A stretch of DNA of 64,000 nt. It comes from Flavobacteriaceae bacterium PRS1 (GTDB lineage: Bacteria > Bacteroidota > Bacteroidia > Flavobacteriales > Flavobacteriaceae). Made by a program: the position numbers and the translations under genes. The stretch covers positions 1 through 64,000 of the forward strand of contig RDRZ01000003.1 in the NCBI GenBank assembly GCA_003709165.1, written 5' to 3'. Under the pieces are notes generated by a model that ran no database searches, had not been told where the DNA came from, and saw only the letters and a list, made by a program, of their open reading frames with translations. Shown piece after piece: positions 1,694 through 25,921 of the stretch (positions within the stretch are counted from its first letter, which is position 1; the number at the start of each line of letters is the position of its first letter).

Positions 1694-2896
1694 GTGTCAA
1701 ATCAGCTAAATATACTTTATAACGATTCCCTTAAATTATTAAGGCAATTAAGCACTTCACAAGGTATTCTAGCTAGTACTTTAGAGTCTGATAATTATAA
1801 GCGTATTTGGGCTAGAGATAGTATAATTTGTGGGATTGCAGGACTTTTGGCAGAGGACAAAACTATTGTTCAAGGATTAAAAGCCTCATTACTAACATTG
1901 GCCAAGTATCAAAATAAGCAAGGTATTATTCCTTCCAATGTATTAGAAAAAGAAAATGATGTAGACATTTCTTATGGAAGTTTAGTAGGCAGAGTTGATA
2001 CTAATACTTGGTTTATTGTTGGGTGCTGTTTATATTATTTAAATACAAAAGATGAGGAAACTTGGGTATTTCTAATCCCTTCGATTTTTAAAAGTAGAAA
2101 CTATTTAAAAACTATCGAATTAAATGGTAAAGGTTGGATTTACACACCTTTAAGCGGTAATTGGGCCGATGAATATCCAATACATGGTTATACCCTTTAT
2201 GATAATATGTTACGGTTATGGGGAGAATCATTATGGTTAAAAACTCAAAAAAAAACAGAGGCTGAATTTGATAATTTAAAAGCAAAAACTTTAATTAATT
2301 TTTGGCCTGAAAAAACAGCCAATCAAGGACGTGTTTATCAAAAACAATCATTTACTAGCGTTTTAGACAAATCAATTCAACATTTTTGTTCTAGTATCTT
2401 ACCTGGAAAATATAATACAAGATTTGATGCTGCTGGAAATGCCCTTACATTATTGATTTTTAAATTGTCGGCAACTCAAAAAGAAAGCATTAGAATATAT
2501 TTATCATTTTTAAAAACTAATATCTCTAAAATGTTAATACCAGCGTTTTGGCCAGTTATTAAAAAAAATGATGCTGAATGGGAAGATTTAAAAGAAAATT
2601 ATTCTTTTTCTTTTAAAAACAAACCCTATAATTTTCATAATGGAGGTATTTGGCCTGTTTGGATGGGACTCTTTTGCCTTGGCCTTTCGAATAATAGTTT
2701 AATTAAAGAGGCTGAAAAAATAATTCAAGATTTTATATCAGTTATCGCTTCACAAAACTGGAATTTTAATGAATATATTTCTGGAAATAATTTAAAACTC
2801 GGTGGAAAAGAACAAATGGGTTTTTCGGCATCAGGAATTGTATTTATGTACTATGCATTAAATTTTCAGAAATGCAGTAAAAAATTAGGGTTGTGA
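1694..2896 (+). CDS. Cytosolic (alpha/alpha)6-barrel glycosidase, GH100/amylo-alpha-1,6-glucosidase-like
   Basis: The protein has 400 residues and no signal peptide. An early W-A-R-D-S motif (about residue 40), then GRVDTNTWF and later W-A-D-E-Y plus F-H-N-G-G-I-W-P-V-W, fit the six-hairpin glycosidase fold used by neutral invertases (GH100) and glycogen-debranching-type glucosidases. The substrate is not fixed by sequence; a glucoside taken up by the downstream transporter is the natural inference. The start is GTG at 1694, since an in-frame TAG lies at 1688. The stop overlaps the next GTG start by 4 bases (GTGA), so translation is probably coupled. It heads the disaccharide operon that ends with trehalase. 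Confidence 0.7.
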   Translation: MSNQLNILYNDSLKLLRQLSTSQGILASTLESDNYKRIWARDSIICGIAGLLAEDKTIVQGLKASLLTLAKYQNKQGIIPSNVLEKENDVDISYGSLVGRVDTNTWFIVGCCLYYLNTKDEETWVFLIPSIFKSRNYLKTIELNGKGWIYTPLSGNWADEYPIHGYTLYDNMLRLWGESLWLKTQKKTEAEFDNLKAKTLINFWPEKTANQGRVYQKQSFTSVLDKSIQHFCSSILPGKYNTRFDAAGNALTLLIFKLSATQKESIRIYLSFLKTNISKMLIPAFWPVIKKNDAEWEDLKENYSFSFKNKPYNFHNGGIWPVWMGLFCLGLSNNSLIKEAEKIIQDFISVIASQNWNFNEYISGNNLKLGGKEQMGFSASGIVFMYYALNFQKCSKKLGL

Positions 2897-3552
2897 TTGG
2901 AGATGAAATTATATACCATAAGGGATATGAAAAAATTACAGATTTTGTAATTGAAAAATTAGCATCTATTCAAAAGTCTGGTTCAAAACTGTGTATTTCT
3001 GTAGGCGGCGAATCCGGATGTGGTAAAACATCTCTTGCATATGCTCTACAAAAAGACATTGAAAATAACACAGGATTAAAAAGTTTTATTTTTCATTTAG
3101 ATGACTATTTTAAACTACCTCCAACAGATAATCACTACGCAAGACTTAATGACATTAGTAAAGTTGGGTCGAATGAAGTTAACTTAGATTTATTAGACTC
3201 TCACTTGATTCATTTTAAAGAAAAAAGTAGAATTTTAAATAAACCTCTTGTTGATTATCATCAAAATAAAATATTAAAAGAACATATTTCTTGCAGTGAA
3301 TTTGATTTTTGTATTGTTGAAGGAACTTACGCAAGTCTTTTAAAAAATCCAGATTATAAATTATTTATAAAAACTACTTATCTTGAAACACTAAATTCAA
3401 GAATTGAACGCTCAAGAGATATAATTAATGATTTTAATAAAAAAGTTCTAGAAATAGAACATCAAATAATTAGAAACCATAAGGGTTTGGCAGATGTTAT
3501 TATAGATAAAGATTTAAGAATTAGTAAACCTAAAAAACAAAGCAATGATTAA
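2893..3552 (+). CDS. P-loop kinase of the uridine kinase / phosphoribulokinase / glycerate kinase superfamily
   Basis: This 219-residue cytosolic protein has a Walker A loop, GGESGCGKTS, near residues 38-47 and an HLDDYFKLP segment near 75-83. Both are typical of uridine-kinase-like small-molecule kinases, where the Asp pair contacts the substrate hydroxyl and magnesium. Given its place between a glycosidase and a sugar transporter, it may phosphorylate a released sugar or glycerate; this is inference. It starts at GTG overlapping the previous stop, and its 3' end overlaps the ATG of the following transporter-derived frame by 8 bases. That tight junction shows the left copy of the 228-bp repeat is the original operon boundary. 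Confidence 0.65.
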   Translation: MIGDEIIYHKGYEKITDFVIEKLASIQKSGSKLCISVGGESGCGKTSLAYALQKDIENNTGLKSFIFHLDDYFKLPPTDNHYARLNDISKVGSNEVNLDLLDSHLIHFKEKSRILNKPLVDYHQNKILKEHISCSEFDFCIVEGTYASLLKNPDYKLFIKTTYLETLNSRIERSRDIINDFNKKVLEIEHQIIRNHKGLADVIIDKDLRISKPKKQSND

Positions 3553-3758
3553 AAAACCTAAACTTTCGTTTTGGCAAATTTGGAATATGAACATAGGATT
3601 TCTAGGAATCCAGTTTAGTTTTGGCTTACAACAAACAGCTATTAACCCTATTTTTTCTTTTCTAGGTGCAGAGTCACATGATTTACCTTTGTTAAATATT
3701 GCCAGACCTGTAACGGGTTTAATTATTCAGCCGTTAATAGGTGCAATTTCAGATAAAA
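3531..3758 (+). repeat. 228-bp direct repeat, left copy (5' end of SLC45/GPH transporter gene)
   Basis: Bases 3531-3758 match 13693-13920 with two substitutions that I can count, both in coding sequence and both amino-acid changing (Ser for Pro and Arg for Gly in this copy). The repeat starts 14 bases before the transporter ATG and ends 71 codons into it. The copies are 10,162 bases apart and bound the inserted glycosidase block. Here the repeat is preceded by the intact kinase gene end. Confidence 0.95.
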
Positions 3759-4735
3759 TCCGAATTTGGGCAGGTCTCCCAGCCTATAATAAAGAACCCA
3801 TAGAGCTTAAATCTGGTAAGCACACTATTCGCTTAATGGATAAATTTGGAAAGTTTGAAGGGAAATTTATTGTTCAGTTATTTGATAAAGACATACTAAT
3901 AGATGAAAACATTATTGAAATCAAAGCAGGTACACCACGACTGGCAAGTATCGTTGAAAAAACTTCTGGGAAAACGAACTTAAAAGGCATGATAAAAATA
4001 CCTGCTGGTTCTTTCATTTTTAACTCTAGTAATGGCGATCAATTTATTCCATATCCGAATTTCCAAAAAGGGAAACAATTTCAAATGGAAAGTTATTATA
4101 TAGATAAACACCCTGTTACCAATGCTCAGTTTGATAAATTTCTTAAAAAAAGCAAATATCAACCCTTAGATACAGCAAATTTTTTGAAACATTGGAATAA
4201 TGGAAAAATTCCAAAAAGACAAGAAAATTTCCCAGTAGTTTATATAAGTTACGAAGATGCTAAAGCTTATGCAAAATGGGCTAACAAAAGACTGTCTACA
4301 GAAATTGAATGGCAATATGCTGCCCAAACACCAGACGAAAGAACGTGGCCATGGGCAAAAAATACTGGAGATATTTATAGAGAAAAAGAAGAAATCACAG
4401 GGTCATTGACCGTGTATAAAATTAAAGGAATAGATGCTGTTTATTGCAATTTAGGCAATGGCACACCTGATGCCATTGGAACATACCCTAAAGGAGCAAA
4501 CCCCTATGGACTTGAGGACTTAGTAGGGTCTGTTTGGCAAATGACCAACGACCTCTATAAAAGTGGCTCTTACGATTATATTATTATGAAAGGAGGCTCC
4601 TATTACAACCCAACCTCAAGTTGGTGGTATGTGCAAGGTGGGCCGCGTGAACTACATTACCGACAACAATTATTAAGAGTTTCTCAAGGTTTTGAAAGAA
4701 ATGCAACCGTTGGCTTTAGATGTGTTGCCGATTAA
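3545..4735 (+). CDS. Chimeric ORF: 71 codons of SLC45/GPH transporter fused to the C-terminal part of an FGE-sulfatase-like protein
   Basis: Residues 1-71 are the start of the MFS transporter encoded in full at 13707, ending at S-D-K. From residue 72 the frame continues without interruption into an unrelated protein: a short Ig-like stretch (about 72-135), then a formylglycine-generating-enzyme/SUMF1-type domain (about 145-396) ending in V-G-F-R-C-V. The C-terminal region where FGEs carry their copper-binding Cys pair reads MKGGSYYNPTSSWWY, with no Cys, so sulfatase-activating activity is unlikely; a structural or PvdO-like role is possible. The FGE part lacks its own start and signal peptide, so it is 5' truncated. 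The fusion may be a dead gene or a misdirected membrane protein. Confidence 0.85.
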   Translation: MIKKPKLSFWQIWNMNIGFLGIQFSFGLQQTAINPIFSFLGAESHDLPLLNIARPVTGLIIQPLIGAISDKIRIWAGLPAYNKEPIELKSGKHTIRLMDKFGKFEGKFIVQLFDKDILIDENIIEIKAGTPRLASIVEKTSGKTNLKGMIKIPAGSFIFNSSNGDQFIPYPNFQKGKQFQMESYYIDKHPVTNAQFDKFLKKSKYQPLDTANFLKHWNNGKIPKRQENFPVVYISYEDAKAYAKWANKRLSTEIEWQYAAQTPDERTWPWAKNTGDIYREKEEITGSLTVYKIKGIDAVYCNLGNGTPDAIGTYPKGANPYGLEDLVGSVWQMTNDLYKSGSYDYIIMKGGSYYNPTSSWWYVQGGPRELHYRQQLLRVSQGFERNATVGFRCVAD

Positions 4736-4764
4736 AATAAATGACTATAAATAACCAAACTGAA

Positions 4765-7700
4765 ATGAAAAAAACAGCAACAATTCTATTACTACTTCTA
4801 GGCGTTACTTTAAGTTTCGTAAGATGTACTCAAAGTTCTAAAGAAAATTCATCAAAAATAGGCCTGATAATGGACGTTCCAGAAGCCGAGGCAAAAGCAG
4901 TACATGAGTTTTTAGGAAATCAGGAAGCTTTGAAAAGTACAATACTTAATAAAGATGTTGACTTGGAATCTCTTGATTTAACCCATATCTGGATACATCA
5001 ATTTTCCAAAAACAAGCAATCTGCTATGGAAGCTTCCATTAAAAAATTCGTCAAAAATGGAGGGAATTTAATTCTATCTATGGAAGCCATGCATTTATTG
5101 AATACATGGGGAATTGAAAAAAATAATCTTGAATCTAAAACAGACTCTATAGTCGATGAAGGCTTTGGGAGGCCATTAGGCTTCCACGGATTTAAAGACC
5201 ACCCTATTTTTGATGGACTTCAAGGTGGTGCTTACCCTTGGAAAAGTAAGGAAGACCATAAAGTTAAGAAAATCGGTTTTTTTAACGAACAATTACCTGA
5301 TACTACCATTGCAAAGGTTTTAGGTATAGAATGGACTTATATTACCTTTCATGAAAACAATAAATTGGTGCTAGAATACGATTACGGAAAGGGAAAAATA
5401 ATTGCCGTAGGTGCATATTCCTATTTCTCTAAAGAAAATTATAATACGCATGAGTTACATCGATTTTATACAAATATTATTGATTACATGGCGGGAGATA
5501 CTAAAAACATTGGCTTAAATTATTGGAAATATGCCCCTCAAAAGGTACTTCCATTAAAACAACAATTCTCTTCTTTAGCCATCTCTAATGCCACTAAATG
5601 GCAACTACCAAAATTAAGCCTTAACCTAAAAAGGAAAGAAGCAAGTAATAATGCCACCCTGATGACGGGAAGACGTATGATGATTGGTGGCGTGGAAAAA
5701 GGAGGTATTGAAGAAATATGGACAAACCCGTTTATGTCCTTTCGCGATATTGAAACAGGAGTTTTATTGAAAAACAGCGACTCTGTAACGTGGTTAAGCG
5801 ATTTAACTCCGTCCATTACCTCCTCTCCTGAATTGCTTATTCGGGAATACAAAATTGCAGGTACTGTTTTAAAAGAAATAACAACTGTTTCAATGGATAA
5901 ACCAGTGGGAGTAGTACACTACGAATGGGAAGGCAATGATTTCTCTAAAATAATGATAAAATATACTTCCAACCTACGTTATATGTGGCCTTATTCAGAA
6001 AAGGTAACGGCTTCCATTTCTTATAAATGGGTTCCAGAAATAAACGCTGCCGTGAATATTGGTCAATCCGGTGAGCTGGCAAGTATCATTGGATTTAGCA
6101 GTAAACCCGATTCATTTTTAATGGGGCAATACGATGATTTTAAATACAATAAAGGAAAATTTACCCCCTCTAAAACAGATTTAATACAAGTAAGCGGTGT
6201 TTTTAGTTTTGATACCGAAAAGGCAAATGGAAAACTAAATACATATTTAGTTGCTGATGATAGTGGTATTCAAAATGCCATTGATATCTATAGTTCTGAA
6301 TCCAAAAATTTTAATCAACTTTACTTAAAAACTTCAGACTACTATACTAAGTTATTAAACAATAGCTTAATGCTTACCACTCCCGATACCAAATTTAACA
6401 CAGGTTATAAATGGGCGATGGTTAGAACAGATCAATTTTTTCAGGAAACACCGAACATAGGAACAACCATAGTGGCTGGACTTGGAACGACTTCACGAGG
6501 ATGGGACGGTAACCAAAAAATAAATGGCCGCCCAGGGTATGCATGGTATTTTGGTAGAGATGCACAGTGGTGTGGTTTTGCTGTGAATGCCTACGGAGGG
6601 CACGAAATGGTAAAAAAAATACTGGATGTATTTATTACCTATCAAAATTTGAATGGAAAAATATTTCACGAATTAACCACCAGTGGTGCTGTTCATTTTG
6701 ATGCTTCCGATTCTACACCATTGTATATAATATTAGCCGCTCACTATTTGAAATATTCAGGAGATTTAGAATATATCAACAAAATATGGCCCTCACTAAA
6801 ACGGGCAATGGACTTTTGCTATAGCACAGACACAGACAATGATGGTTTAATTGAAATAACCAACGTGGGTCATGGATGGGTTGAAGGAGGATCTCTATTT
6901 GGTACACATACTGAAATTTATTTAGCAGGGACTTGGGCTGCTACTTTAGAATCTGCTGCTTATATTACAAACCATTTAGATAAAAAGGGATTATCAGAGT
7001 CCTACAATAAAGATGCTCAAAAAGTAAAGAAAATTATTGATACAGATTTTTGGAATGAAGAAGGACAGTATTTTTATAATGGGAAAATGACTGATGGCTC
7101 ATTTATGGATGCTGAAACTGTTTTGGCAGGAGTTCCTGTCTATTTTAATGCAGTTACAGATCCTAAAAAAGCATTTAAAACTGCTGCTGCTTATGCTGGA
7201 AACATGTACACCGCAGATTGGGGAGTACGGATTATACCCGAAAGTAGTGAAAAATTCCACCCACGCTCCTATCACGGAGGCATGGTATGGCCATTATTTA
7301 CAGGATGGGCATCGCTTGCTGAATACAAAACTGGAAATTATACAAGTGCCTATAGCCATATAATGAATAACGCATTGATATATCAGCACTGGAACTTGGG
7401 AGGTGTGGAAGAAACTTTACATGGTGCTAAATTTGAACCAGCAGGTGTTTGTAGTCAGCAAGGGTGGTCGGAAACCATGGTACTTCAACCTGTTTCAGAA
7501 GGCATGTTAGGGATTGTTCCTGATGCTCTTTCCAATAGCATTTCATTATCACCTCATTTTCCATGGCATTGGAATGAGGTAAAAGTGGATAATATCCTAT
7601 TCGGAAATCACCGTATCCATATGAGCATGTTAAAAACACCAACTACCACTACCTATGAATTTAAGGAAGTATTAAAAGAGGGTAGTAAATTGAATTTCAC

Positions 7701-8139
7701 CCCTTCTTTCCCATTGGGAACTATTATCAATAAGGTGTTGATTAATGGTAAAAATACTGAATATAAAATTGTTGAAAATGCTGAAAGTATTGAATTGGTA
7801 TTGGGTAAACAATTGCTTAATAGTATAATGACTATAGAAGTTAATCATAAAAACGGAATTGGAGCAATACCTTTAATAAATGAACCTCAGCCAGGAGACA
7901 CTAACAAAGGCGCAAAAATTATCAGTCAACAATTAAAAAACAATCAGTTTAAAGTAGTTATTGAAGGATTACCAAACACAGCCTATCAATTTGAAATTAT
8001 GTCTAATCTTGAAATCAAGAATTTGACCAATGGCACAATTGTCAATAAAAAGGAAAATGTATATACTATTCAAACAAAGACTAAGGTATCAGGTCAAAAA
8101 TATGCAGAGCAAATTATTACCCTAACATTAATAGATTAA
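4765..8139 (+). CDS. Envelope lipoprotein with N-terminal GATase/ThuA-like domain and C-terminal six-hairpin glycosidase
   Basis: I chose the ATG at 4765 because it opens a lipoprotein signal (LLLLLGVTLSFVRC); an in-frame ATG at 4741 would only add eight polar residues. The protein has about 1,124 residues. Residues of roughly 30-250 look like a glutamine-amidotransferase/ThuA-like Rossmann domain (D-H-P-I-F-D-G-L). A beta-rich linker follows, then an (alpha/alpha)6 catalytic region with WYFGRDAQW, FHELTTSG, W-V-E-G-G and a HGGMVWPLF helix, as in debranching or rhamnosidase-type families, and a C-terminal beta-sandwich. The exact GH family is not recognised. It begins 29 bases after the chimeric ORF and is followed by a GH127 gene 3 bases later. 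Confidence 0.7.
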   Translation: MKKTATILLLLLGVTLSFVRCTQSSKENSSKIGLIMDVPEAEAKAVHEFLGNQEALKSTILNKDVDLESLDLTHIWIHQFSKNKQSAMEASIKKFVKNGGNLILSMEAMHLLNTWGIEKNNLESKTDSIVDEGFGRPLGFHGFKDHPIFDGLQGGAYPWKSKEDHKVKKIGFFNEQLPDTTIAKVLGIEWTYITFHENNKLVLEYDYGKGKIIAVGAYSYFSKENYNTHELHRFYTNIIDYMAGDTKNIGLNYWKYAPQKVLPLKQQFSSLAISNATKWQLPKLSLNLKRKEASNNATLMTGRRMMIGGVEKGGIEEIWTNPFMSFRDIETGVLLKNSDSVTWLSDLTPSITSSPELLIREYKIAGTVLKEITTVSMDKPVGVVHYEWEGNDFSKIMIKYTSNLRYMWPYSEKVTASISYKWVPEINAAVNIGQSGELASIIGFSSKPDSFLMGQYDDFKYNKGKFTPSKTDLIQVSGVFSFDTEKANGKLNTYLVADDSGIQNAIDIYSSESKNFNQLYLKTSDYYTKLLNNSLMLTTPDTKFNTGYKWAMVRTDQFFQETPNIGTTIVAGLGTTSRGWDGNQKINGRPGYAWYFGRDAQWCGFAVNAYGGHEMVKKILDVFITYQNLNGKIFHELTTSGAVHFDASDSTPLYIILAAHYLKYSGDLEYINKIWPSLKRAMDFCYSTDTDNDGLIEITNVGHGWVEGGSLFGTHTEIYLAGTWAATLESAAYITNHLDKKGLSESYNKDAQKVKKIIDTDFWNEEGQYFYNGKMTDGSFMDAETVLAGVPVYFNAVTDPKKAFKTAAAYAGNMYTADWGVRIIPESSEKFHPRSYHGGMVWPLFTGWASLAEYKTGNYTSAYSHIMNNALIYQHWNLGGVEETLHGAKFEPAGVCSQQGWSETMVLQPVSEGMLGIVPDALSNSISLSPHFPWHWNEVKVDNILFGNHRIHMSMLKTPTTTTYEFKEVLKEGSKLNFTPSFPLGTIINKVLINGKNTEYKIVENAESIELVLGKQLLNSIMTIEVNHKNGIGAIPLINEPQPGDTNKGAKIISQQLKNNQFKVVIEGLPNTAYQFEIMSNLEIKNLTNGTIVNKKENVYTIQTKTKVSGQKYAEQIITLTLID

Positions 8140-8142
8140 ACA

Positions 8143-10209
8143 ATGAGAAAAATAAAAATAGTTTGTTTTTTATTAGGTATAATAATTGTTATTGGAAGTT
8201 GTAATTCTGAAAATGATCGTGTAATAACTGATACTAAAAATTTAAATCAAATTCTTACGCCTGTTCCATTTAATGAAGTCACTTTAAAAGATCAATTTTG
8301 GCTACCCAGATTAAAAACACAAAAGGAAATCTTAGTGCCATTTGCATTAGATAAAACCATTCCAGCAGTTGAAAACCTCGAAAAAACAGCAAAATATTTA
8401 AAAGGAGATATCACAGACCTCCCTTTTCCTCACAGATATATTTCTTCAGATCTATATAAAGTTATGGAGGGTGCAGCACTGCTATTACGGGAGCAACCAG
8501 ACCCTGAATTGGAAAAGCGTATAGATGGAATAATTGAGACTATTGCAAGAGCACAAAAAGAAGATGGTTATTTGTATGTAGCCCATACCACGGGAGTTTC
8601 TAAAGATGCTTCGCATTGGGGAGGTGACGGAATGGGAGACAAACCGTACTCGTGGGTAATACATAGCCACGAATTGTATAATATGGGACACATGTATGAG
8701 GCAGCCGTTGCATATTACCAATCTACAGGGAAAGATAAATGGCTCAAAGTGGCAGAAAAAAACGCACAGCATATAAACAAGGTGTTTTTTGAAGGAGATC
8801 CAAATTATAATAATGGAATTCCTGTAAATCAGGCTTCTGGACATGAAGAAATAGAACTAGCACTAGTTAAATTATATCGAGTTACCGGAAATAAATTATA
8901 TCTCGATATGGCAAAAAAATTTCTGGATATTCGGGGTGTAACCTTTACACCTGTGGGTGATGAATATATGTCACCAACGTATTCGCAACAACATAAACCA
9001 ATTACTGAACAAACAAAAGCCGTAGGTCATGCAGTTAGAGCAACCTATCTTTATTCAGCCATGGCTGATGTTGCTTATCTAACTGGAACAGATGCATACA
9101 ATAAGGCATTAGATAAAATATGGAGTAATATCGTAAATACGAAAATGCACATCACTGGTGGATTGGGTGCTATGCATGGTATAGAGGGATTTGGACAGGA
9201 TTATGAGCTACCAAATAAGGAAGCCTACAATGAAACTTGTGCAGCAGTTGGAAATGTATTTTTTAACTATCGTATGTTTTTGCAAACAAAAGAGGCTAGA
9301 TTTATGGATGTTGCTGAAGTGGCGCTGTTTAATAATGCACTGGCAGGGGTAAATATGGAAGGCAACAAGTTTTTCTATGTTAACCCATTGGAAGCCGATG
9401 GAATTACGCTTTTTAATCATGGTAAAAAAGGCCGATCTCCTTGGTTTAATACAGCCTGCTGCCCATCCAACATTGCAAGATTACTACCCCAAATTTCAGG
9501 AATGATGTACGCTCATAATTCAGACGAAATTTATGCAATGCTTTATGCTAGCAATTCAACTATAATTCCTTTGAAAAAAGGTAATGTTACTATTGATCAG
9601 TTATCTAATTATCCTTTTGAGGATAAAACAACATTTATTTTAACGCCTGAAAAAGAACAACGTTTTGCATTAAAACTAAGAATTCCGACCTGGGTAGGAG
9701 CACAATTTGTTCCAGGGAAATTGTATAATTATATAGAAAGTACTAATGAAGAAAGCTGGAGTGTAACAATAAATGGAAAACCTGTAACAGCCTCTTTAGA
9801 AAATGGTTTTGCAGTTATTAAAAAGTTATGGAAGCCAGGCGACAAAGTGGAACTTATACTACCAATGCCCGTAAGATTCAATACCACTATTGATGTTGTT
9901 ACAGCCAATAAAAATCGAATTTCTATCACAAGAGGACCTTTGGTTTATTGTGCAGAGGAAGTTGATAATAACACCCCAGTACAAAATTTATTTATTGATG
10001 ATGTATCTCAAACAACAAGCAAAACAAAGGTGATTTCAGAAGGATTATTAAAAAATGTAACTCAAATCACTCTATCTGGAAAGATGTCTGATTCTAATAC
10101 TATTAGTGACAAAAAAATAAAATTGGTACCTTATTATTCGTGGAATAATCGTGGGGATTCTACCATGATTGTATGGTTTCCAACTGCAGCGGACATGATT
10201 CCAAAATAA
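8143..10209 (+). CDS. GH127-family beta-L-arabinofuranosidase-like lipoprotein
   Basis: This 688-residue protein has a lipoprotein signal (GSC about residue 20). It aligns by eye with the DUF1680/GH127 fold: an all-alpha barrel entered through LKDQFWLPR and containing the zinc-thiolate centre. Glu364 and Cys366 (Y-N-E-T-C) and the Cys439-Cys440 pair (ACCPSN) occupy the positions of Glu338, Cys340, Cys417 and Cys418 of Bifidobacterium HypBA1, where the first of the paired Cys is the nucleophile. It should remove non-reducing beta-L-arabinofuranose or a related sugar at the cell surface or in the periplasm. Spacing to both neighbours is 3 and 11 bases, so it is part of one operon. Confidence 0.88.
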   Translation: MRKIKIVCFLLGIIIVIGSCNSENDRVITDTKNLNQILTPVPFNEVTLKDQFWLPRLKTQKEILVPFALDKTIPAVENLEKTAKYLKGDITDLPFPHRYISSDLYKVMEGAALLLREQPDPELEKRIDGIIETIARAQKEDGYLYVAHTTGVSKDASHWGGDGMGDKPYSWVIHSHELYNMGHMYEAAVAYYQSTGKDKWLKVAEKNAQHINKVFFEGDPNYNNGIPVNQASGHEEIELALVKLYRVTGNKLYLDMAKKFLDIRGVTFTPVGDEYMSPTYSQQHKPITEQTKAVGHAVRATYLYSAMADVAYLTGTDAYNKALDKIWSNIVNTKMHITGGLGAMHGIEGFGQDYELPNKEAYNETCAAVGNVFFNYRMFLQTKEARFMDVAEVALFNNALAGVNMEGNKFFYVNPLEADGITLFNHGKKGRSPWFNTACCPSNIARLLPQISGMMYAHNSDEIYAMLYASNSTIIPLKKGNVTIDQLSNYPFEDKTTFILTPEKEQRFALKLRIPTWVGAQFVPGKLYNYIESTNEESWSVTINGKPVTASLENGFAVIKKLWKPGDKVELILPMPVRFNTTIDVVTANKNRISITRGPLVYCAEEVDNNTPVQNLFIDDVSQTTSKTKVISEGLLKNVTQITLSGKMSDSNTISDKKIKLVPYYSWNNRGDSTMIVWFPTAADMIPK

Positions 10210-10220
10210 ACAAATAAAAC

Positions 10221-12437
10221 ATGAAAACAACTAACCAAATATTACATCTGAAAACAATACTATATGTACTTCTTTTATTTTTTATTTCCTGTAGAACTAA
10301 TCAAAAAAAGTCTATCCTAGAAGCAATAATTGTTGAGGTTCCATCTACTTCTCAAAAAAACAATCACTATATAAGTAATAGAGCTCCCTTACAACCTAGT
10401 GTGCTCATTAAATTACCAGTAGGCTCGATTGACCCAGATGGTTGGCTTAAAGAATATCTGCACCGTCAAAGATCAGGATTAACAGGCAATCTAGGAAAAA
10501 TTAGTGCATGGTTGCAAAAAGAAAATAACGCTTGGTTGGATAAGGATGGAAAAGGCAACTGGGGTTGGGAAGAAGTTCCATACTGGCTGAAAGGTTATGC
10601 CAACATAGGTTATATTTTAGATGATCCCGAAATGATTAAAGAGGCTAAAATATGGATTGATGGAGCAATAAATAGTCAGAAACCAAATGGCTTTTTTGGC
10701 CCTGGGTTTGCATGGGAAAGCTATATTTCAGAAGAAAATAGAACTGCTGAAAGATTGGCTAAAAAACTTAAAAAGCAAGATTATTGGGCCAATATGATTA
10801 TGCTCTATTGTCTGCAATCCTATTACGAATACACTGCCGATGAACGGGTCATTACTTTAATGACCAATTATTTCAAACATCAATTGGGGGTTCCTGATGA
10901 AGATTTTTTATCAGAAAGTCAGTACTGGCAAAGAATCAGAGCTGGAGATAATTTACATAGTGTTTTATGGTTGTACAATCGTACGGGAGAATCTTGGCTG
11001 TTGAAACTTGCAGAAAAAGTACATAGAAACACTGCTCCCTGGAGTAAACGAGATAATACTCTAGAGGCTATTGGAAGTCCAAAGGAAATACGAGAAGGTA
11101 TGGAGTGGCCTGAGTGGTACGGTAAATTAATCGATTGGCATAATGTAAACATAGCACAAGCATTCAGAGAACCTGCACAGTACTATTTGTTAAGCGGTAA
11201 TAAAAAAGATTTACAGGCTACCTATGATAATTTTAATATTATTAGAAAATATTTCGGACAGGTTCCTGGAGGAATGTATTGTTCCGATGAAAATTGTCGT
11301 CCTGGGTACGATGATCCAAGACAAGGGGTAGAAACTTGTGGGATGGTAGAGCAAATGAATTCGGATGAACATTTATTGAGAATTACCGGAGATATTTTTT
11401 GGGCAGATCATGTAGAAAATGTTGCTTTCAATACCTACCCAGCAGCTGTTGCTCCCGATTTTAAAAGTCTCCGTTATATCACCAGTCCTAATATGGTAAT
11501 CAACGACAATAAAAATCATAGCCCCGGCATTGACAATCCAGGGCCACATCTTATGATGAATCCTTTTAGCTCACGTTGCTGTCAGCATAATCATGCTCAA
11601 GGATGGCCTTATTTTGCCGAAAATCTGTGGATGGCGACTCCTGATAATGGGCTAGCTGCAGTGATTTATGCGTCAAGTAGCGTAACAGCTAAAGTAGGTG
11701 ATGGATCAGTAGTTACCATTAAACATACGAGTAACTACCCTTTTGAAGATGCATTGAACTTTGAAATAACTCTTCAAAAATCGACTGCGTTTCCTTTGTA
11801 TTTTAGAATTCCAGGATGGGCTAACGATGCTTTTATTAGCTTAAACGGAGAAAAAATTGATATAAAACTAGAAGCTGGAAAATATTTAAAAGTAAATAGA
11901 GAATGGAGTAATGGTGATAAAATCCAACTTCAATTACCTAAAAAAATACAAGTAAAAACCTGGGAAGCAAATCATAATAGTGTAAGTGTAAACTATGGAC
12001 CGTTGACTTTTTCTTTAAAAATTGGAGAAAACTATATTAAAAAAGACAGTGATAAAACTTCACTTCACGACTCAAAATGGCAAAAAGGAGTGAACGCAAA
12101 AGAATGGCCATCTTACGAAATTCATCCAACAACAGACTGGAATTATGGATTGATTTTAAATGAAGATCCAACAACATCCTTTGAAATTGAAATCAAACCA
12201 TGGCCAAAGGACAATTTTCCTTTTACAACAGCATCTGCTCCTATTGTACTAAAGGTAAAAGCAAAGAAAATACCTGACTGGAAAATTGATAAATATGGTT
12301 TGGCAGGAGAATTAAAAGATAGTCCTATAAATTCAAACGAGGTAATTGAAACTGTAGAATTGATACCAATGGGGGCTGCACGATTGAGAATAAGTGCTTT
12401 TCCTGTAATAAAGAAAAAATCAAAAGGAACAGATTGA
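10221..12437 (+). CDS. Divergent GH127-superfamily (DUF1680) lipoprotein glycosidase
   Basis: The protein has 738 residues with a lipoprotein signal (LFFISC). It shares with the previous gene an E-T-C motif (Glu371, Cys373) and a paired Cys motif, SSRCCQHNH (Cys453-Cys454), so the zinc/thiolate active site of GH127-type enzymes seems preserved. The rest is quite different: the N-terminal signature GWLKEYLHRQ is not shared with the first protein. It therefore probably belongs to a separate GH127-related family with its own substrate. The C-terminal part is beta-rich. It is followed by an aldose epimerase 37 bases on. Confidence 0.8.
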   Translation: MKTTNQILHLKTILYVLLLFFISCRTNQKKSILEAIIVEVPSTSQKNNHYISNRAPLQPSVLIKLPVGSIDPDGWLKEYLHRQRSGLTGNLGKISAWLQKENNAWLDKDGKGNWGWEEVPYWLKGYANIGYILDDPEMIKEAKIWIDGAINSQKPNGFFGPGFAWESYISEENRTAERLAKKLKKQDYWANMIMLYCLQSYYEYTADERVITLMTNYFKHQLGVPDEDFLSESQYWQRIRAGDNLHSVLWLYNRTGESWLLKLAEKVHRNTAPWSKRDNTLEAIGSPKEIREGMEWPEWYGKLIDWHNVNIAQAFREPAQYYLLSGNKKDLQATYDNFNIIRKYFGQVPGGMYCSDENCRPGYDDPRQGVETCGMVEQMNSDEHLLRITGDIFWADHVENVAFNTYPAAVAPDFKSLRYITSPNMVINDNKNHSPGIDNPGPHLMMNPFSSRCCQHNHAQGWPYFAENLWMATPDNGLAAVIYASSSVTAKVGDGSVVTIKHTSNYPFEDALNFEITLQKSTAFPLYFRIPGWANDAFISLNGEKIDIKLEAGKYLKVNREWSNGDKIQLQLPKKIQVKTWEANHNSVSVNYGPLTFSLKIGENYIKKDSDKTSLHDSKWQKGVNAKEWPSYEIHPTTDWNYGLILNEDPTTSFEIEIKPWPKDNFPFTTASAPIVLKVKAKKIPDWKIDKYGLAGELKDSPINSNEVIETVELIPMGAARLRISAFPVIKKKSKGTD

Positions 12438-12474
12438 TAATTTTAAATATTCGCACAATATTAAATTTTAAAAA

Positions 12475-13605
12475 ATGAAATACTACTATATCCCAATCGC
12501 TATATTTATGTTATTAAACGCATGTCAAAAAGCTACAAAATCAGATATACTTATAATTCCTACTAAAAATTTCGATAAAGTTATCAATGGAAAAAAAGTT
12601 TCTCTTTTCACTCTTAAAAATGATAGAGGAACCATTACTCAAATTACAAACTATGGAGGGAAAGTCGTTTCTCTTTGGGTAGCCGACAAAAATGGGACTA
12701 TGGATGATATAGTTATGGGATATGACAATATTGATGGGTATTTAACTGCAAAAGAAAAATATTTTGGAGCATTAATTGGGAGATATGGCAATCGTATAGG
12801 AAATGGAAAATTTTTATTGGAAAGTAAGGAGTACACCCTTGCAACCAATAACGGAGCCAATCACTTACATGGAGGAGATAAAGGTTACGATGCAGTGGTA
12901 TGGGATGCTAAGCTATTAAATGAACAAACTTTAGAGCTAAAATACCTCTCCAAACATTTAGAAGAAGGCTATCCTGGTAATCTAACCATTAAAGTTCTAT
13001 ACCAGTTGACCAACGACAACGAGCTGAAAATAGAATATTGGGCAACTACAGATCAAACTACAGTTGTAAACATGACCCATCATTCCTTCTTCAACCTGAA
13101 AGGAACAGGTAAAGGAGATATAAACAATCATTTATTACAAATTAATGCAGCGCAATATACCCCAGTAGATAAAGGATTGATACCTACAGGGGTCATTGCA
13201 CCTGTTGCAAATACCTCATTTGATTTTCAGCAATTGACAGCTATTGGAAAAAGAATAAATGATGATGTTGAGCAGTTAAAATTTGGTTTGGGATACGATC
13301 ATAACTGGGTATTAAATAAAAATAAGGAAGGGTTGAATTATGCTGCCAAAATAATAGAACCTACATCTGGTAGGTCTCTGGAAATTTACACCAACGAACC
13401 AGGTTTGCAATTTTATGGAGGTAATTTTTTGGATGGCACTATCATTGGAAAAAGGGGAATTACCTATAAACACAGAGAGGCTTTCTGCCTAGAAACACAA
13501 CATTTTCCAGATAGTCCAAACAAGGAGGATTTTCCTTCAACCATTTTAAAACCAGAAGAAGAATATTATTCTATTTGTATTTACAAAATGTCAATCACTA
13601 ATTAA
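12475..13605 (+). CDS. galM: Aldose 1-epimerase (mutarotase) lipoprotein
   Basis: This 376-residue protein begins with a lipoprotein signal (LLNAC), so it is probably extracytoplasmic. Family hallmarks are NHLHGGDKGYD (with the catalytic-site His), N-M-T-H-H-S-F-F-N-L near residue 203, YDHNWVL near 278, and Q-F-Y-G-G-N-F then E-T-Q-H-F-P-D-S-P near the end, where the general-base Glu of mutarotases lies. It would interconvert sugar anomers released by the neighbouring glycosidases. It is the last gene of the inserted block; about 90 bases of non-coding DNA separate it from the right copy of the repeat. Confidence 0.9.
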   Translation: MKYYYIPIAIFMLLNACQKATKSDILIIPTKNFDKVINGKKVSLFTLKNDRGTITQITNYGGKVVSLWVADKNGTMDDIVMGYDNIDGYLTAKEKYFGALIGRYGNRIGNGKFLLESKEYTLATNNGANHLHGGDKGYDAVVWDAKLLNEQTLELKYLSKHLEEGYPGNLTIKVLYQLTNDNELKIEYWATTDQTTVVNMTHHSFFNLKGTGKGDINNHLLQINAAQYTPVDKGLIPTGVIAPVANTSFDFQQLTAIGKRINDDVEQLKFGLGYDHNWVLNKNKEGLNYAAKIIEPTSGRSLEIYTNEPGLQFYGGNFLDGTIIGKRGITYKHREAFCLETQHFPDSPNKEDFPSTILKPEEEYYSICIYKMSITN

Positions 13606-13692
13606 AAATAGAAATCTTATTTTCTCTACTTTACAACCAATTTATGATGGAATTACTACCTTCATTCGGACATAAAAGTTAAGGATGTTTGT

Positions 13693-13920
13693 TAAAAAAC
13701 AAAGCAATGATTAAAAAACCTAAACTTTCGTTTTGGCAAATTTGGAATATGAACATAGGATTTCTAGGAATCCAGTTTAGTTTTGGCTTACAACAAACAG
13801 CTATTAACCCTATTTTTTCTTTTCTAGGTGCAGAGCCACATGATTTACCTTTGTTAAATATTGCCGGACCTGTAACGGGTTTAATTATTCAGCCGTTAAT
13901 AGGTGCAATTTCAGATAAAA
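13693..13920 (+). repeat. 228-bp direct repeat, right copy (start of the intact transporter)
   Basis: This copy continues into a full transporter gene and keeps the family-typical residues N-I-A-G-P-V-T-G where the left copy has Arg for Gly. Upstream it shares nothing with the left copy beyond the repeat: the kinase tail is missing and replaced by the spacer following the aldose epimerase. Confidence 0.95.
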
Positions 13921-15014
13921 CTTGGTCACCGAAATTTGGGAGACGTAAACCATTTTTTTTAATCGGAGCAATTATAGGAAGTTTATGTTTGTTTGCTTTT
14001 CCTTTTAGTCCAGTTTTATGGTTTGCTGTTGGATTACTTTGGATTTTAGACGTTGGTAATAATACAGCAATGGAACCTTATAGAGCATTTATTGGAGATA
14101 AATTGCCTGAAAAACAATTAGGTTTAGGGTTTCAAATGCAAAGTTTATTTGTAAGTGCAGGAATAGTTTTAGCTAACTTATCTATATTTCTTTTTCAAGA
14201 TTGGTTTGGAGGTGGAACTGTAGAAGAAACCAATATAATACCAACATGGCTTTATTATTCCTTTTTTATTGGAGCTGTTTTATCCGTTGCAACAATTCTT
14301 TGGACTGTACTAAAAACTCCTGAAATACCACCTACTGAGGAAGAATTTATTGAACTCGAAAAGCACAAAAAACTTCCATTTACAATTAAAGTTTTTGAAC
14401 CCATAAAAGAAATTTACAATGCTATTAAAAACATGCCAAAATTCATGTGGAAACTGGCTGGCGTTTATTTATTTCAATGGTATGCCTTGTTTTGTTATTG
14501 GCAATTTGTTTCCCCTATGTTTGAAGTAACTATGGGATTTGGAAAAAGTGATGCACTTTCACAAGCCTCTAAAATGAATTTAACCTATAATTTAGTAACC
14601 ATGGCTGTAGCATTAGCATTAGTTCCTTTAGCAGCCAAACTAGGAAATAAAAAAATATATGTTGCAAGCTTATTTGGTACAGGTATAGCGATGTTATGTA
14701 TTCCTTATATAACCGATCCGTATTTAGTATTAGTACCTATGGTATTATTTGGTATAGGCTGGGCAGCAATGATGGGAATTCCCTACACTATGGTTTCTAA
14801 AGTAATACCTCAAGATAAACGTGGAGTTTATATGGGTGTTGTTAATATGATGATAGTTATACCAATGTTTATTCAAACCTTAACCTTTGGTCCCATTATT
14901 AAACATTTACTTAATAATAGTGCTGTTAACGCTATTTTATTTGGAGGTGTTTTCTTTGTTATTTCGGCTATTTTGGCTACTAGATTAAACACAACAGAAT
15001 CTATTAAAACTTAA
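13707..15014 (+). CDS. SLC45/GPH-type major facilitator sugar transporter
   Basis: The ATG at 13707 gives 435 residues; a TTG six codons earlier is less likely because the repeat and the left copy share the ATG. About 12 hydrophobic segments are visible. The loop between the second and third helices reads SDKTWSPKFGRRKP, the MFS D-x-x-x-x-x-x-G-R-R-K signature typical of SLC45/sucrose-type symporters. It likely imports an intact disaccharide with protons or cations, feeding the cytosolic GH100-like enzyme and trehalase. It is followed by a second MFS gene after 4 bases. Confidence 0.85.
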   Translation: MIKKPKLSFWQIWNMNIGFLGIQFSFGLQQTAINPIFSFLGAEPHDLPLLNIAGPVTGLIIQPLIGAISDKTWSPKFGRRKPFFLIGAIIGSLCLFAFPFSPVLWFAVGLLWILDVGNNTAMEPYRAFIGDKLPEKQLGLGFQMQSLFVSAGIVLANLSIFLFQDWFGGGTVEETNIIPTWLYYSFFIGAVLSVATILWTVLKTPEIPPTEEEFIELEKHKKLPFTIKVFEPIKEIYNAIKNMPKFMWKLAGVYLFQWYALFCYWQFVSPMFEVTMGFGKSDALSQASKMNLTYNLVTMAVALALVPLAAKLGNKKIYVASLFGTGIAMLCIPYITDPYLVLVPMVLFGIGWAAMMGIPYTMVSKVIPQDKRGVYMGVVNMMIVIPMFIQTLTFGPIIKHLLNNSAVNAILFGGVFFVISAILATRLNTTESIKT

Positions 15015-22106: not shown

Positions 22107-22249
22107 AGAAAAGATTAATCCAACTTTATAACTTATAATAATTTATCATCGTAATATTGCAATATTACAATGATTTAGATTTCATAAATATATCTAAACT
22201 GTGAACTAATTATCCTAATTTTATTAAATTTACCAAAACTCCTTTTAAT

Positions 22250-23032
22250 TTGGAATTACTTGAAACTTTTAAATTTAATGTTATAGATGTTATAGACATT
22301 GTTCTGGTAGCATTTTTAATGTATTATATGTACAAACTCGTAAAGGGCACGGTTGCCATAAATATATTTATTGGTATTGTAATGGTTTACCTCATCTGGA
22401 AATTGACTCAAGCTCTGCAAATGCAGCTTCTAAGTAATATTTTTGGTGGTTTTATTAGTGTAGGTATGTTTGCTCTTATTGTCGTGTTTCAACAAGAAAT
22501 AAGAAAATTTTTATTAATGATTGGTTCTACAAATATCGGCAATCGGAAAAAGTTCTTTAAACAACTTAAATTTTTAAAAACCGATGCTATTCCAGAAATA
22601 CATACTGACGATATTATTTCTGCTTGCACAAAAATGGGAAGCACTAAAACGGGCGCTTTAATTGTTTTAGAACGTAACAACAATCTTGATTTTTTAGTCA
22701 TTACAGGAGATGAAATGAAGATTAAAGTAACACAGCCCATAATAGAAAGTATTTTCTTTAAAAATAGCCCATTACATGATGGAGCAGTTATAATAAAGGA
22801 TAATACCATAAAGGCAACACGTGTTATTTTACCAGTAAATAACGAAAAGAAAATACCACAACGCTTTGGATTACGCCATAGAGCTGCTATTGGAATTACT
22901 GAAATAACAGATGCTCTAGCTCTTGTAGTTTCTGAAGAAACCGGACAAATTTCTTATATTAAGGATGGTGAATTTGTAATGTTTAAAGATGCCTCCGAAC
23001 TTACCGAAATGATTAAAACTGATTTGGCTTAA
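22250..23032 (+). CDS. cdaA: Diadenylate cyclase (c-di-AMP synthase) CdaA
   Basis: The protein has 260 residues: three N-terminal transmembrane helices (about 13-80), then a DAC domain with the catalytic DGA motif (SPLHDGAVI, about 174-182) and RHR motif (GLRHRAA, about 207-213). It makes cyclic di-AMP, which controls potassium and osmotic balance. The start appears to be TTG at 22250, matching the expected N terminus; no good ATG is available before the first helix. The stop codon lies within the downstream hairpin. Confidence 0.93.
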   Translation: MELLETFKFNVIDVIDIVLVAFLMYYMYKLVKGTVAINIFIGIVMVYLIWKLTQALQMQLLSNIFGGFISVGMFALIVVFQQEIRKFLLMIGSTNIGNRKKFFKQLKFLKTDAIPEIHTDDIISACTKMGSTKTGALIVLERNNNLDFLVITGDEMKIKVTQPIIESIFFKNSPLHDGAVIIKDNTIKATRVILPVNNEKKIPQRFGLRHRAAIGITEITDALALVVSEETGQISYIKDGEFVMFKDASELTEMIKTDLA

Positions 23033-23051
23033 AAACTTTTTAAGCCAAATC
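23021..23051 (+). terminator. Hairpin overlapping the cdaA stop
   Basis: GATTTGGCTT and AAGCCAAATC form a 10-bp stem around the cdaA stop codon, followed by a short T-rich stretch. It sits between convergent genes. Confidence 0.6.
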
Positions 23052-23079
23052 TTTCTACAAACTAATGAACAAAATAGAT

Positions 23080-23637
23080 TTAAAAATTATAGCCAATTCT
23101 AAAAGTTAATTCTGCTGTTGTATCCCAATAATTATTAGCAAGAATTAAAGATTTTCCAATACCAAAACCGCCTTCAAAACTCAAATGTTCATTCCAAACT
23201 TTGCGAAAACCAATTTTTGGTATAAAGTCTAAACTTTCAATAACTGAAGTGTTATTATCATTAGAAATGACAAACCAATCTGGAAAATACCGTGTTTTAA
23301 ACCCTAAAAAGAAACCCGAATTATGCGCAATAGCTCTGTTTTTTCGAACACGTCTTTCTAGGCTATAGTACCAACGTGGTTCAATAACTATATTTGGGAG
23401 TAATGCAAACACCAATTCGTCGTTTGTTAAAATCCCTTTTCTTAAACCTAATTCAAGCCCAATCTCAGTTCGCAATGATATTAAAGGAGTAAGTTTTGGT
23501 TCGAAATGTGCCCAAAATCCAAAAAGACCTAATTGTACACCAATTACGCTATTTTCAACAGAAGGTGTTTTATTATTGTTTTGAGCTTGAGCTATAAAAA
23601 ATGATGATAGTATTAAAATAAATATTGTTTTTTTCAT
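23080..23637 (-). CDS. Small exported beta-barrel-like outer membrane protein, unknown function
   Basis: This 185-residue protein has a clear Sec signal peptide (about 18 residues ending S-F-F-I-A-Q-A-Q). The mature part alternates aromatic and polar residues (for example PRWYYSLERRV) and ends in -GYNF with a C-terminal aromatic, as in outer-membrane barrels. I do not recognise a specific family. It is downstream of another small barrel-like gene on the same strand (34 bases), so the pair may form one unit. Confidence 0.6.
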   Translation of the reverse strand: MKKTIFILILSSFFIAQAQNNNKTPSVENSVIGVQLGLFGFWAHFEPKLTPLISLRTEIGLELGLRKGILTNDELVFALLPNIVIEPRWYYSLERRVRKNRAIAHNSGFFLGFKTRYFPDWFVISNDNNTSVIESLDFIPKIGFRKVWNEHLSFEGGFGIGKSLILANNYWDTTAELTFRIGYNF

Positions 23638-23670
23638 AATGAATGTAGTTGTTTTATATTGATAGTTAAA

Positions 23671-24192
23671 TTATAATCGTATCCTTAAAGCAAAGCCTAT
23701 ACCATTAACAAAAAAATTACTTGCACTATTTTTTAAATTAAAAGTTCTACTAAATCTAAACAATTCTATTGTATAGAAGAAATTATAATCTGACTCTATT
23801 AGATAACCTAAACCTAATTTAGCTGTCTGTCCTGTAGAAAAACTATCTCCTATGTCTAAATATTTTCCTGTGTTAATAAACATATATGGGCTTTGGTATC
23901 CAATAGGATTTAAATACCATCTAAAATCTGCTATTAAAGGAATTGCCCAAGATTGTTTGTTAAAGCTTCTAATTATTCCTGTACCTGCCGATAAAGTCAT
24001 TCTTCTTGTAAACTTCAAGCCACCATAAGTGTGCAATGCAAAACCAAAAGGTGCTTTTTCATTTGTTCCATTTTCTTCTGTACCTATTACAATTTCAAAA
24101 TCTATTAATGAGACAAATTTCATTTTATATCTATCCTCTTTTTGAGCAATTATAAAAAGACAATTTAAGAAAAATAGAAAAAATATCTTCAT
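23671..24192 (-). CDS. Small exported beta-barrel-like protein (intact copy)
   Basis: ATG at 24192 (MKIFFLFFLN) gives a 173-residue exported protein. After a short signal peptide ending about I-I-A-Q it has barrel-like strands (GGLKFTRRMTLSAGTGI, WYLNPIGYQSPYMF) and the C terminus ALRIRL. No known family was recognised. The first 83 codons and 9 bases of leader are duplicated at 25665-25921, where they are broken. The stop of the decayed lipoprotein frame upstream lies 2 bases before this ATG, so the genes were once translationally coupled. Confidence 0.6.
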   Translation of the reverse strand: MKIFFLFFLNCLFIIAQKEDRYKMKFVSLIDFEIVIGTEENGTNEKAPFGFALHTYGGLKFTRRMTLSAGTGIIRSFNKQSWAIPLIADFRWYLNPIGYQSPYMFINTGKYLDIGDSFSTGQTAKLGLGYLIESDYNFFYTIELFRFSRTFNLKNSASNFFVNGIGFALRIRL

Positions 24193-24201
24193 TTTTAAAA
24201 A
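23943..24201. repeat. 259-bp direct repeat, copy in intact barrel gene
   Basis: Bases 23943-24201 match 25665-25921; the only difference I find is a 2-base deletion in the other copy within the signal-peptide codons. The copies are about 1.72 kb apart in the same orientation. The repeat covers 9 bases upstream of the ATG and the first 83 codons or so. Confidence 0.95.
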
Positions 24202-25267
24202 ACTATAAGGCTTCCATGCCATTGACCAATTCTTTTTACAGTACCATATAAAGATGCACCAAACCTCTTCGGTTTTAAAACCAAATCTCTATTGGAAGGA
24301 TTAATAGACCAATTGTTTTCAGGATTTACTGTAGCTTTTAATGTAAAACCAAAATCTATGGTTTTATCAACTTTTTTACAGTCTAAACAATTATCAAAAA
24401 CAGATTTTTGAACTAATATTCTACCATATTTTGGACTTTTAAAACTAAAGTTCTACTCTTTGGTACTTTATAATTACTATCAAAAGTTAAATAGGATTTC
24501 ACAATATTCTTAGTTGCATCTTGTGCCCTACTCCAAAAATAATCGTTTAGTTTTTCTTTAACGAGTTGATTATTTGCGAATTCTAATGCCCAATCTAGTG
24601 CAACATTATTAGTAAATAATTCAATTACTAAATCGTCCTGAACAGCAATCGGATAAAGATTACTTGAAAAAGTAGTTTGAGCAGTTACATATACATACCC
24701 AGATATTCCTGTATAAAAATTTGTACTGAATATCCACTGTTTACCATACTTTTTTGAAGAAATTTTAGTTTCAAATAAATTCAACCCACTTAAAGCTCCT
24801 GGATTATTTCCAGTAGTTTCTTCACCTTTATAATTATAAACTACTCCTTCACAATTTATAATTGGTCTATCATCTTCAGTTAAATAAAAATCAATTTTTA
24901 CATAATTATTATTAGTAAAATTTAAGAATTTAGTTTCAATTGTTTTGTATCCAACACTTATGGCTTTTAAGTAAAGCATTGTGTCTTTCGTAGATTTAAA
25001 TATAAAAGAATATTCTCCATCTCCTGAAGTTTGAGCTTTAAAGCACCCCAGAATTAATTGAGTATGGCTTATTGGTTCTTTCGTTTTAACATCAATTACT
25101 TTTCCGAAAATATGAATTTCTATGGGTTCAATATTTGAATTTTGTTTGAGTTCGATTTTATATCCTCCAATATTATCAGTAGGGATTAGTTCGTTTTTAA
25201 TTGTAGAACAACTGATAAGTAAGAACAAAGAAGTAAAAAATATTACCTTATAATTAAAGAATTTTAT
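24195..25267 (-). pseudogene. Decayed lipoprotein with carboxypeptidase-regulatory-like domain
   Basis: The frame opens at 25267 with ATA where ATG is expected. The next codons spell a convincing lipoprotein signal (K-F-F-N-Y-K, then a hydrophobic run to LLISC), so start-codon loss is likely; the first usable alternative is TTG at 25228. The body has a CarboxypepD_reg/peptidase-associated beta-sandwich (VIDVKTKEPISHTQLILG). Near 24440 the frame ends prematurely, but another frame continues with about 80 sensible residues (including PKRFGASLYGTVKRIGQWHG) to a stop at 24195. That suggests a single-base deletion. A shorter functional protein from 24413 to 25228 cannot be excluded. Confidence 0.6.
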
Positions 25268-25279
25268 AATCTAATTTTA

Positions 25280-25664: not shown

Positions 25665-25912
25665 TTGCCCAAGATTGTTTGTTAAAGCTTCTAATTATTC
25701 CTGTACCTGCCGATAAAGTCATTCTTCTTGTAAACTTCAAGCCACCATAAGTGTGCAATGCAAAACCAAAAGGTGCTTTTTCATTTGTTCCATTTTCTTC
25801 TGTACCTATTACAATTTCAAAATCTATTAATGAGACAAATTTCATTTTATATCTATCCTCTTTTTGAGCAATTATAAAAAGACAATTTAAGAAAAATAGA
25901 AAAAATCTTCAT
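25665..25912 (-). pseudogene. Broken 5' fragment of the small barrel gene (duplicate)
   Basis: ATG at 25912 begins the same gene start as at 24192, but a 2-base deletion after the third codon region shifts the frame, and a TAG follows after 19 codons. An internal ATG would restore the original frame (MKFVSLIDFE) and run through the junction into the HExxH remnant, giving a 111-residue chimeric ORF without a signal peptide. It is probably not a functional product. Confidence 0.8.
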
Positions 25913-25921
25913 TTTTAAAAA
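25665..25921. repeat. 257-bp direct repeat, copy fused to the HExxH remnant
   Basis: This is the partner of 23943-24201. Its end nearest the remnant (25665) is the breakpoint; the other end lies 9 bases before the ATG. Confidence 0.95.

What the first reader, a model, noticed from the sequence alone, without database searches (positions are those of the whole stretch)
3531..4735. In-frame chimera of a sugar-transporter start and an FGE-like tail at a 228-bp direct repeat
The first 71 codons of the SLC45/GPH transporter (plus 14 bases of leader) occur twice, at 3531-3758 and 13693-13920, with only two substitutions. In the left copy they run without a break into the C-terminal part of an FGE-like protein that has lost its own start and signal. 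Both substitutions in the left copy change amino acids, one at a Gly kept in the intact copy, as expected for a fragment free to drift. This is a recent rearrangement that made a hybrid open frame.
Basis: seen in the sequence. Interest (0 to 1): 0.8.

Follow-up and report, generated by a model that had tools for sequence, protein, structure and literature searches.

The report
Gene-cluster insert flanked by copied target
A 9.9-kb block of sugar-digesting genes appears to have been inserted into a bacterial sugar-transport operon with a 228-base copy of the insertion site on each side, which kept both neighbouring genes whole and left a fusion gene at one edge; this is a known type of insertion with an unusual cargo.

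Summary
Bases 3531-3758 and 13693-13920 are a 228-bp direct repeat with two differences, and the left copy reads in frame into an FGE-like tail. In five of five related genomes that hold the upstream kinase gene (K) and whose contig runs past it, the transporter (T) follows K directly. So 3759-13692 (X) is an insert and the repeat a duplicated target. Both substitutions arose in the left copy; one hits a glycine kept in 32 of 32 homologues examined. The tail is the last ~324 residues of a protein whose 64 closed-frame homologues carry 570-699 more residues upstream. No transposase was recognised in X's five main frames. Three of 75 tail homologues share the word GATAAAAT with the join; the closest two do not. 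[quoted passage not shown] the hybrid frame is probably a by-product. A second repeat in the window, 23943-24201/25665-25921, has the same geometry and a 9-nt shared word at its join. The genome is a draft without reads here, so assembly error is not excluded. Precedent: Helicobacter restriction-modification insertions.

The parts
2893..3552 (+). K: uridine-kinase/PRK-like kinase gene; its last 22 bp lie inside the left repeat, so it stayed whole
   Evidence: PRK Pfam hit; directly precedes T in G001, G003, G004, G053 and G599
3531..3758 (+). R1, left copy of the 228-bp target: end of K, 14-nt leader, 71 codons of T and one base; carries both derived substitutions
   Evidence: polarised with G001 and 32 T homologues
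3545..4735 (+). hybrid open frame, 396 aa: T residues 1-71 plus C-terminal ~324 aa of a large FGE-like protein
3759..13692 (+). X, the inserted block: FGE-protein tail and four intact carbohydrate genes; no transposase or integrase recognised in its five main frames, no terminal inverted repeat
   Evidence: absent between K and T in 5 relatives; Pfam; end comparison
4741..8139 (+). intact glycosidase-like gene (six-hairpin type, 1132 aa)
   Evidence: Pfam; 59% identical in Maribacter L069
8143..10209 (+). intact GH127 gene, aceric-acid-hydrolase-like (below the NCBIfam cut-off)
   Evidence: 71% in L069
10221..12437 (+). second intact GH127-family gene
   Evidence: 75% in L069
12475..13605 (+). 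intact aldose 1-epimerase gene, last gene of X
   Evidence: Pfam Aldose_epim
13693..13920 (+). R2, right copy of the target; opens the intact transporter gene
13707..15014 (+). T: intact GPH-type sugar transporter, 435 aa; in the five relatives with K next to it, it starts within about 40 nt of the end of the K match
   Evidence: MFS_1 Pfam; GPH_sucrose NCBIfam 85.5 bits, below its cut-off of 511
3752..3758 (+). left join: GATAAAA of host T, shared by some cargo homologues
   Evidence: L121, L133, L140 (3 of 75) hold GATAAAAT there; mean match higher than at 97.4% of in-frame T positions; the closest relatives L068 and L069 lack it
25665..25921 (-). second case (D1): duplicated 5' end of gene P, fused in frame to the C-terminal part of a 464-aa lipoprotein-like type
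23943..24201 (-). second case (D1): other copy, opening the intact gene P (23671-24222)

Best explanation
A 9,934-bp piece of a carbohydrate-use gene cluster, probably from another Bacteroidota lineage, was captured inside a kinase-transporter operon by an insertion without a recognised transposase that duplicated 228 bp of the target (K-R-T became K-R-X-R-T). Shown: empty site in relatives, duplicated target, truncated cargo gene, direction of the two mutations. Inferred: incoming DNA was joined to a broken or replicating chromosome at short shared words (GATAAAA on the left, perhaps a T/A run on the right), by template switching or by capture between staggered ends. The long duplication left the end of K and the start of T whole on their own sides. 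The hybrid frame most likely makes no useful protein (the transporter's first part before a domain without its first ~600 residues; Arg at a conserved Gly). Because it stays open up to 6 bp before the next gene, it may keep translation running into the captured genes and place them under the K operon's control. The two repeats would allow RecA-type recombination to delete X exactly.
For: K directly followed by T in 5 of 5 relatives that hold a close K and whose contigs run past it. G001 shares the right-copy letter at both differing sites. X's FGE tail, GH, GH127, GH127 are found in the same order in Maribacter MMG018, with one extra gene (ADP-ribosylglycohydrolase) after the FGE-like gene; in L072, L077 and L145 the FGE-like gene is followed at once by relatives of X's glycosidase and first GH127. 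Tail truncated: 64 of 64 closed homologues. The N-terminal 602 aa of the Maribacter protein were not found in this draft. No transposase-like domain in X's five main frames, no terminal inverted repeat. X matches no second place in this draft. Left-join word shared with some homologues. A second repeat of the same shape with a 9-nt shared word at its join.
Against: The genome is a draft of 61 contigs, 84.65% complete, and read coverage is not available. The donor was not found (best protein match 70%). The left-join word was chosen after seeing the join; only 3 of 75 homologues carry it whole, all distant ones (47-49% identity), 53 of 75 match at most one base back from the join, and the two closest relatives lack it. 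The right join could not be tested. X's third-position GC (0.24-0.28) overlaps that of 11 other genes of the window (0.19-0.30), so composition does not mark it as foreign. Both long repeats lie in the first 26 kb of one contig, which might point to a local assembly problem. Template switching and end capture are not separated.
Confidence: 0.72

Rival explanations
1. Assembly artefact: a draft assembly joined sequences of two strains or loci through the shared 228 bp, so X is not really between K and T.
For: Draft genome; the two long repeats cluster in 26 kb; no reads to inspect.
Against: The left copy carries Arg at a Gly kept in 32 of 32 homologues, unlikely in any strain's working transporter. 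The FGE homology begins at the repeat end without a gap, so the R-X join is itself a sequence, not just an overlap; a misjoin would also have to create the X-R join.
Confidence: 0.14
2. Single-crossover (Campbell) integration of a circular DNA that carried X plus the 228-bp piece. This overlaps with the best explanation as a possible way of delivery.
For: Gives exactly K-R-X-R-T; the repeats are nearly identical; mosaic identity to G001 around the site points to homologous exchange at this operon.
Against: The circle would itself need both novel joins first; no plasmid or integrase gene among X's five main frames.
Confidence: 0.2
3. Tandem duplication of a larger K-T-X region followed by two deletions.
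For: Would also leave two copies of R.
Against: No K or T remnant lies beside either copy: identity beyond the repeat edges is 20% and 27% over 30 nt and the FGE-like homology starts at once. The FGE tail has no match in G001-G003 and only a weak 39% match in G004.
Confidence: 0.04
4. The hybrid protein is a selected new membrane-anchored FGE-like protein.
For: Frame open for 396 codons; tail without excess decay.
Against: Too young for decay to show (about 0.4 stops expected); ~600 residues missing; Gly54Arg at a conserved site; by the usual transporter topology (recalled) the tail would face the cytoplasm.
Confidence: 0.05

Closest known systems
Insertion with long target duplication (Nobusato et al. 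2000, restriction-modification genes of Helicobacter pylori; seen only as cited)
   Same: Cargo present in one genome and absent from relatives; long direct repeat made from the target, single in the empty allele.
   Different: Cargo is a carbohydrate gene block in an unnamed, probably flavobacterial genome (inferred), not a restriction-modification system; the first cargo gene is truncated and fused in frame to the duplicated target gene.
Homology-facilitated illegitimate recombination
   Same: Foreign DNA joined without a transposase, with an illegitimate join.
   Different: By the abstract in the listing (PMC3240628) it uses homologous recombination at one end and an illegitimate join at the other; insertion with deletion is the outcome I recall. 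Here the target is duplicated, and neither end of X shows homology to the host beyond the repeat.
IS or composite-transposon target-site duplication
   Same: Direct repeats of target flank the insert.
   Different: 228 bp rather than the usual few bases (range recalled; 4-10 bp for IS1 and IS5 in passages of PMC3031569), no transposase recognised, no inverted repeats.

Membership tests
Insertion with long target duplication | Empty site in relatives holding one copy of the repeat | tested here: met
   G001, G003, G004, G053 and G599: K followed directly by T
Insertion with long target duplication | Flanking direct repeat much longer than transposon duplications and derived from the target | tested here: met
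   228 bp, 2 mismatches
Insertion with long target duplication | No transposase or terminal inverted repeats (my criterion; the original paper was not seen) | tested here: met
   Pfam on X's five main frames, small antisense frames not scanned; X ends share no inverted word of 8 nt or more in 150 nt
Insertion with long target duplication | Cargo is frequently a restriction-modification system | tested here: not met
   X genes are FGE-like tail, GHs and epimerase. The passage seen calls the link frequent, not defining
Insertion with long target duplication | Event seen between strains of one species with verified sequence | not testable with these tools
   one genome per species is held; no reads
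Homology-facilitated illegitimate recombination | Long homology between cargo and target at one end | tested here: not met
   X start vs T after R2 20% over 30 nt; X end vs K before R1 27%. The donor's own flanks are unknown
IS or composite transposon | Transposase and inverted repeats | tested here: not met
FGE (formylglycine-generating enzyme) | FGE-sulfatase fold domain | tested here: met
   PF03781, E 2.6e-39
FGE (formylglycine-generating enzyme) | Active-site cysteine pair | tested here: inconclusive
   The C-terminal stretch reads HYRQQLLRVSQGFERNATVGFRCVAD; by recall the two cysteines would lie before GFRC and are missing; the PDB alignments shown do not reach that stretch

The most novel reading that the evidence does not exclude
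Two insertions of one design within 26 kb (a gene's 5' end duplicated from just before its start codon, the neighbouring gene tail joined at a 7-9-nt shared word in the same codon phase, the intact gene downstream) would mean that this lineage takes up gene blocks by a recurrent transposase-free route that copies the target's start, keeps neighbours whole and wires cargo in frame into resident operons.
Probability: 0.15. Interest if true: 0.7.

Novelty: new member of a known kind. Interest (0 to 1): 0.36.

Why it matters
It shows a whole carbohydrate-gene block entering an operon without a recognised mobile element and without destroying either neighbour. In the passages I saw, long target duplication is tied to restriction-modification genes; one paper search combining 'polysaccharide utilization loci' with 'target duplication' gave no paper. 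In a survey of variable segments in three species, most flanking repeats were under 30 bp (passage of PMC2884548), so a 228-bp repeat is unusual. If read-verified, it offers a traceable route for non-mobile gene blocks and an explanation for some hybrid open frames at insert edges.

Tried and rejected
Looked for a second copy or donor of X: no second place in the own draft genome; in 395 genomes of the order 87 gave a DNA match at E 0.001 or better, all partial, the best 68% over about 2 kb. Looked for the lost N-terminal part: not found. Searched one 35-nt left-junction pattern in viral contigs: none. Considered an IS or transposon (no transposase recognised, no inverted repeats) and tandem duplication with deletions (no remnants). 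Considered decay of the tail: no excess. Controls for repeat rarity: 82 loci of 8 kb or more from other genomes, 1.38 Mb, gave three direct repeats of at least 80 bp and 95% identity, all spaced 231 bp or less; the rest of the own-genome sample gave none at that stringency. T without K: of 12 T neighbourhoods, only G599 has K beside T; the other 11 showed no K match, so the K-T order holds only where K exists. Papers: passages only of PMC1643837, PMC4978471, PMC3154945, PMC3031569 and PMC2884548; only reference entries matched in PMC11708052 and PMC2869330; outline and abstract of PMC3784515; search listings; Nobusato 2000 seen only as cited.

Full report
Observation. The two stretches 3531-3758 and 13693-13920 are direct repeats of 228 bp with two differences. 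The left copy continues in frame from transporter codon 71 into an FGE-sulfatase domain; codon 72 takes its first base from the repeat and the rest from X.

What was there before. A search of 60 relatives with K gave 22 genomes with a match at E 0.001 or better, of which only G001-G004 and G053 match strongly (E 6e-24 or lower; the rest are 25-31% identical). In G001, G003 and G004 of the same genus and G053 of another family of the order, K is followed directly by the transporter T; in G002 the contig ends inside K. G599 of the same family, found through T, shows the same order. That is 5 of 5 genomes that hold a close K and whose contigs run past it. In 11 of the 12 T neighbourhoods looked at, T stands without K. 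The ancestral order in this group is therefore K-T, and 3759-13692 (X) is an insert that left the target duplicated. The copy that carries both substitutions is the left one: G001 has the right-copy letter at both sites, with 10 differences from the right copy and 12 from the left. Gly54 is kept in 32 of 32 homologues examined (29 of the best loci plus three earlier ones); position 44 is variable.

What X is. X holds the tail of a large FGE-like protein, a 1132-aa six-hairpin-type glycosidase, two GH127-family enzymes and an aldose epimerase. A scan of genome contigs with the tail kept 80 relatives. Of these, 64 have an open frame closed upstream, and all 64 carry 570-699 further residues before the point where the window's tail begins; the other 16 run into contig ends. 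In Maribacter sp. MMG018 (L069) the complete 928-aa protein is followed by an ADP-ribosylglycohydrolase gene and then by relatives of X's next three genes in the same order; the epimerase was not seen within that locus. In L072, L077 and L145 the FGE-like gene is followed at once by relatives of X's glycosidase and first GH127. X thus looks like a cut piece of a carbohydrate-use cluster. The tail has no match in G001-G003 and a weak one, 39%, in G004. X genes have third-position GC of 0.24-0.28, against 0.12-0.23 for the flanking operon genes, but 11 other genes of the window span 0.19-0.30, so composition settles nothing.

How it was joined. X's five main frames show no transposase or integrase domain and its ends no inverted repeat. 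At the left join the host transporter reads GATAAAA. Three of 75 homologues examined (L121, L133, L140, all at 47-49% identity) hold GATAAAAT at the matching place, and on average the homologues match the host there better than at 97.4% of in-frame positions of T. This test was chosen after seeing the join; 53 of 75 homologues match at most one base back from it, and the two closest relatives, L068 and L069, lack the word. So joining at a short shared word is possible, not shown. It would also explain why the fusion is in frame. The right join starts in a T/A run, with the repeat beginning 14 nt before the start codon; without a donor it cannot be tested.

A second case. The window's other long repeat (23943-24201 and 25665-25921, minus strand) is the 5' end of gene P. 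The copy beside the ABC transporter gene is fused in frame with the C-terminal part of a protein that is intact (464 aa) in G470 (79% identity over a 53-residue piece); the P gene and the G470 gene share the 9-nt word ATCTTGGGC at the join. That fusion has since lost its start frame. The direction of this second event is unclear: P has no match in G001-G004, while the carboxypeptidase-regulatory-like gene next to the fused tail has a relative at the same place in G001.

Artefact check. The genome is a draft: 61 contigs, 84.65% complete. No reads are available. Against a simple misjoin stands the Arg at a conserved Gly in the left copy, which is hard to explain as a working allele of another strain. 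For the artefact speaks that both long repeats lie within 26 kb of one contig.

Function of the hybrid. The frame joins the transporter's first part (two helices by family, recalled; hydropathy there is modest) to a domain without its first ~600 residues. The tail shows one deviation at near-invariant columns; 32 of 78 homologues show as many or more. About 0.4 stop codons would be expected by now, so its open state proves nothing. A useful side effect may be continued translation into the captured genes (inference).

Known parallels. Insertion with long target duplication was described for restriction-modification genes of Helicobacter pylori (Nobusato et al. 2000, seen as cited in passages of PMC1643837, and PMC3031569, which speaks of long and variable target duplications). 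This case meets the structural features tested; the cargo type differs.

Noticed in passing
23943-24201 and 25665-25921 (minus strand): Second long direct repeat with the same geometry: duplicated 5' end of gene P fused in frame at a 9-nt shared word to the tail of a protein that is 464 aa long in G470; start frame now broken by a 2-bp difference.
   Followed up: partly
23033-26005; L178:5019-8360; L230:2901-4739: Variable spot between the conserved gene at 22250-23032 and the ABC transporter gene: nearly empty in G002 and G004, about 0.9 kb in G003. G001 has an M23-peptidase protein whose N-terminal part resembles, by eye, that of the G470 protein, with a different C-terminal part, as in polymorphic effector loci (recalled).
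   Followed up: partly
2893-3312 and 14255-14560: Identity to G001 drops from 90-100% near the insertion to about 48-80% on both sides, while two other stretches of the window, 22200-23156 and 25908-28600, are 92-93% identical: the operon looks like a recombination mosaic.
   Followed up: partly
40647-40756, 49909-50020 and, on contig C32, 94296-94405: A roughly 110-bp repeat occurs in three places (86-91% identity, both orientations).
   Followed up: no
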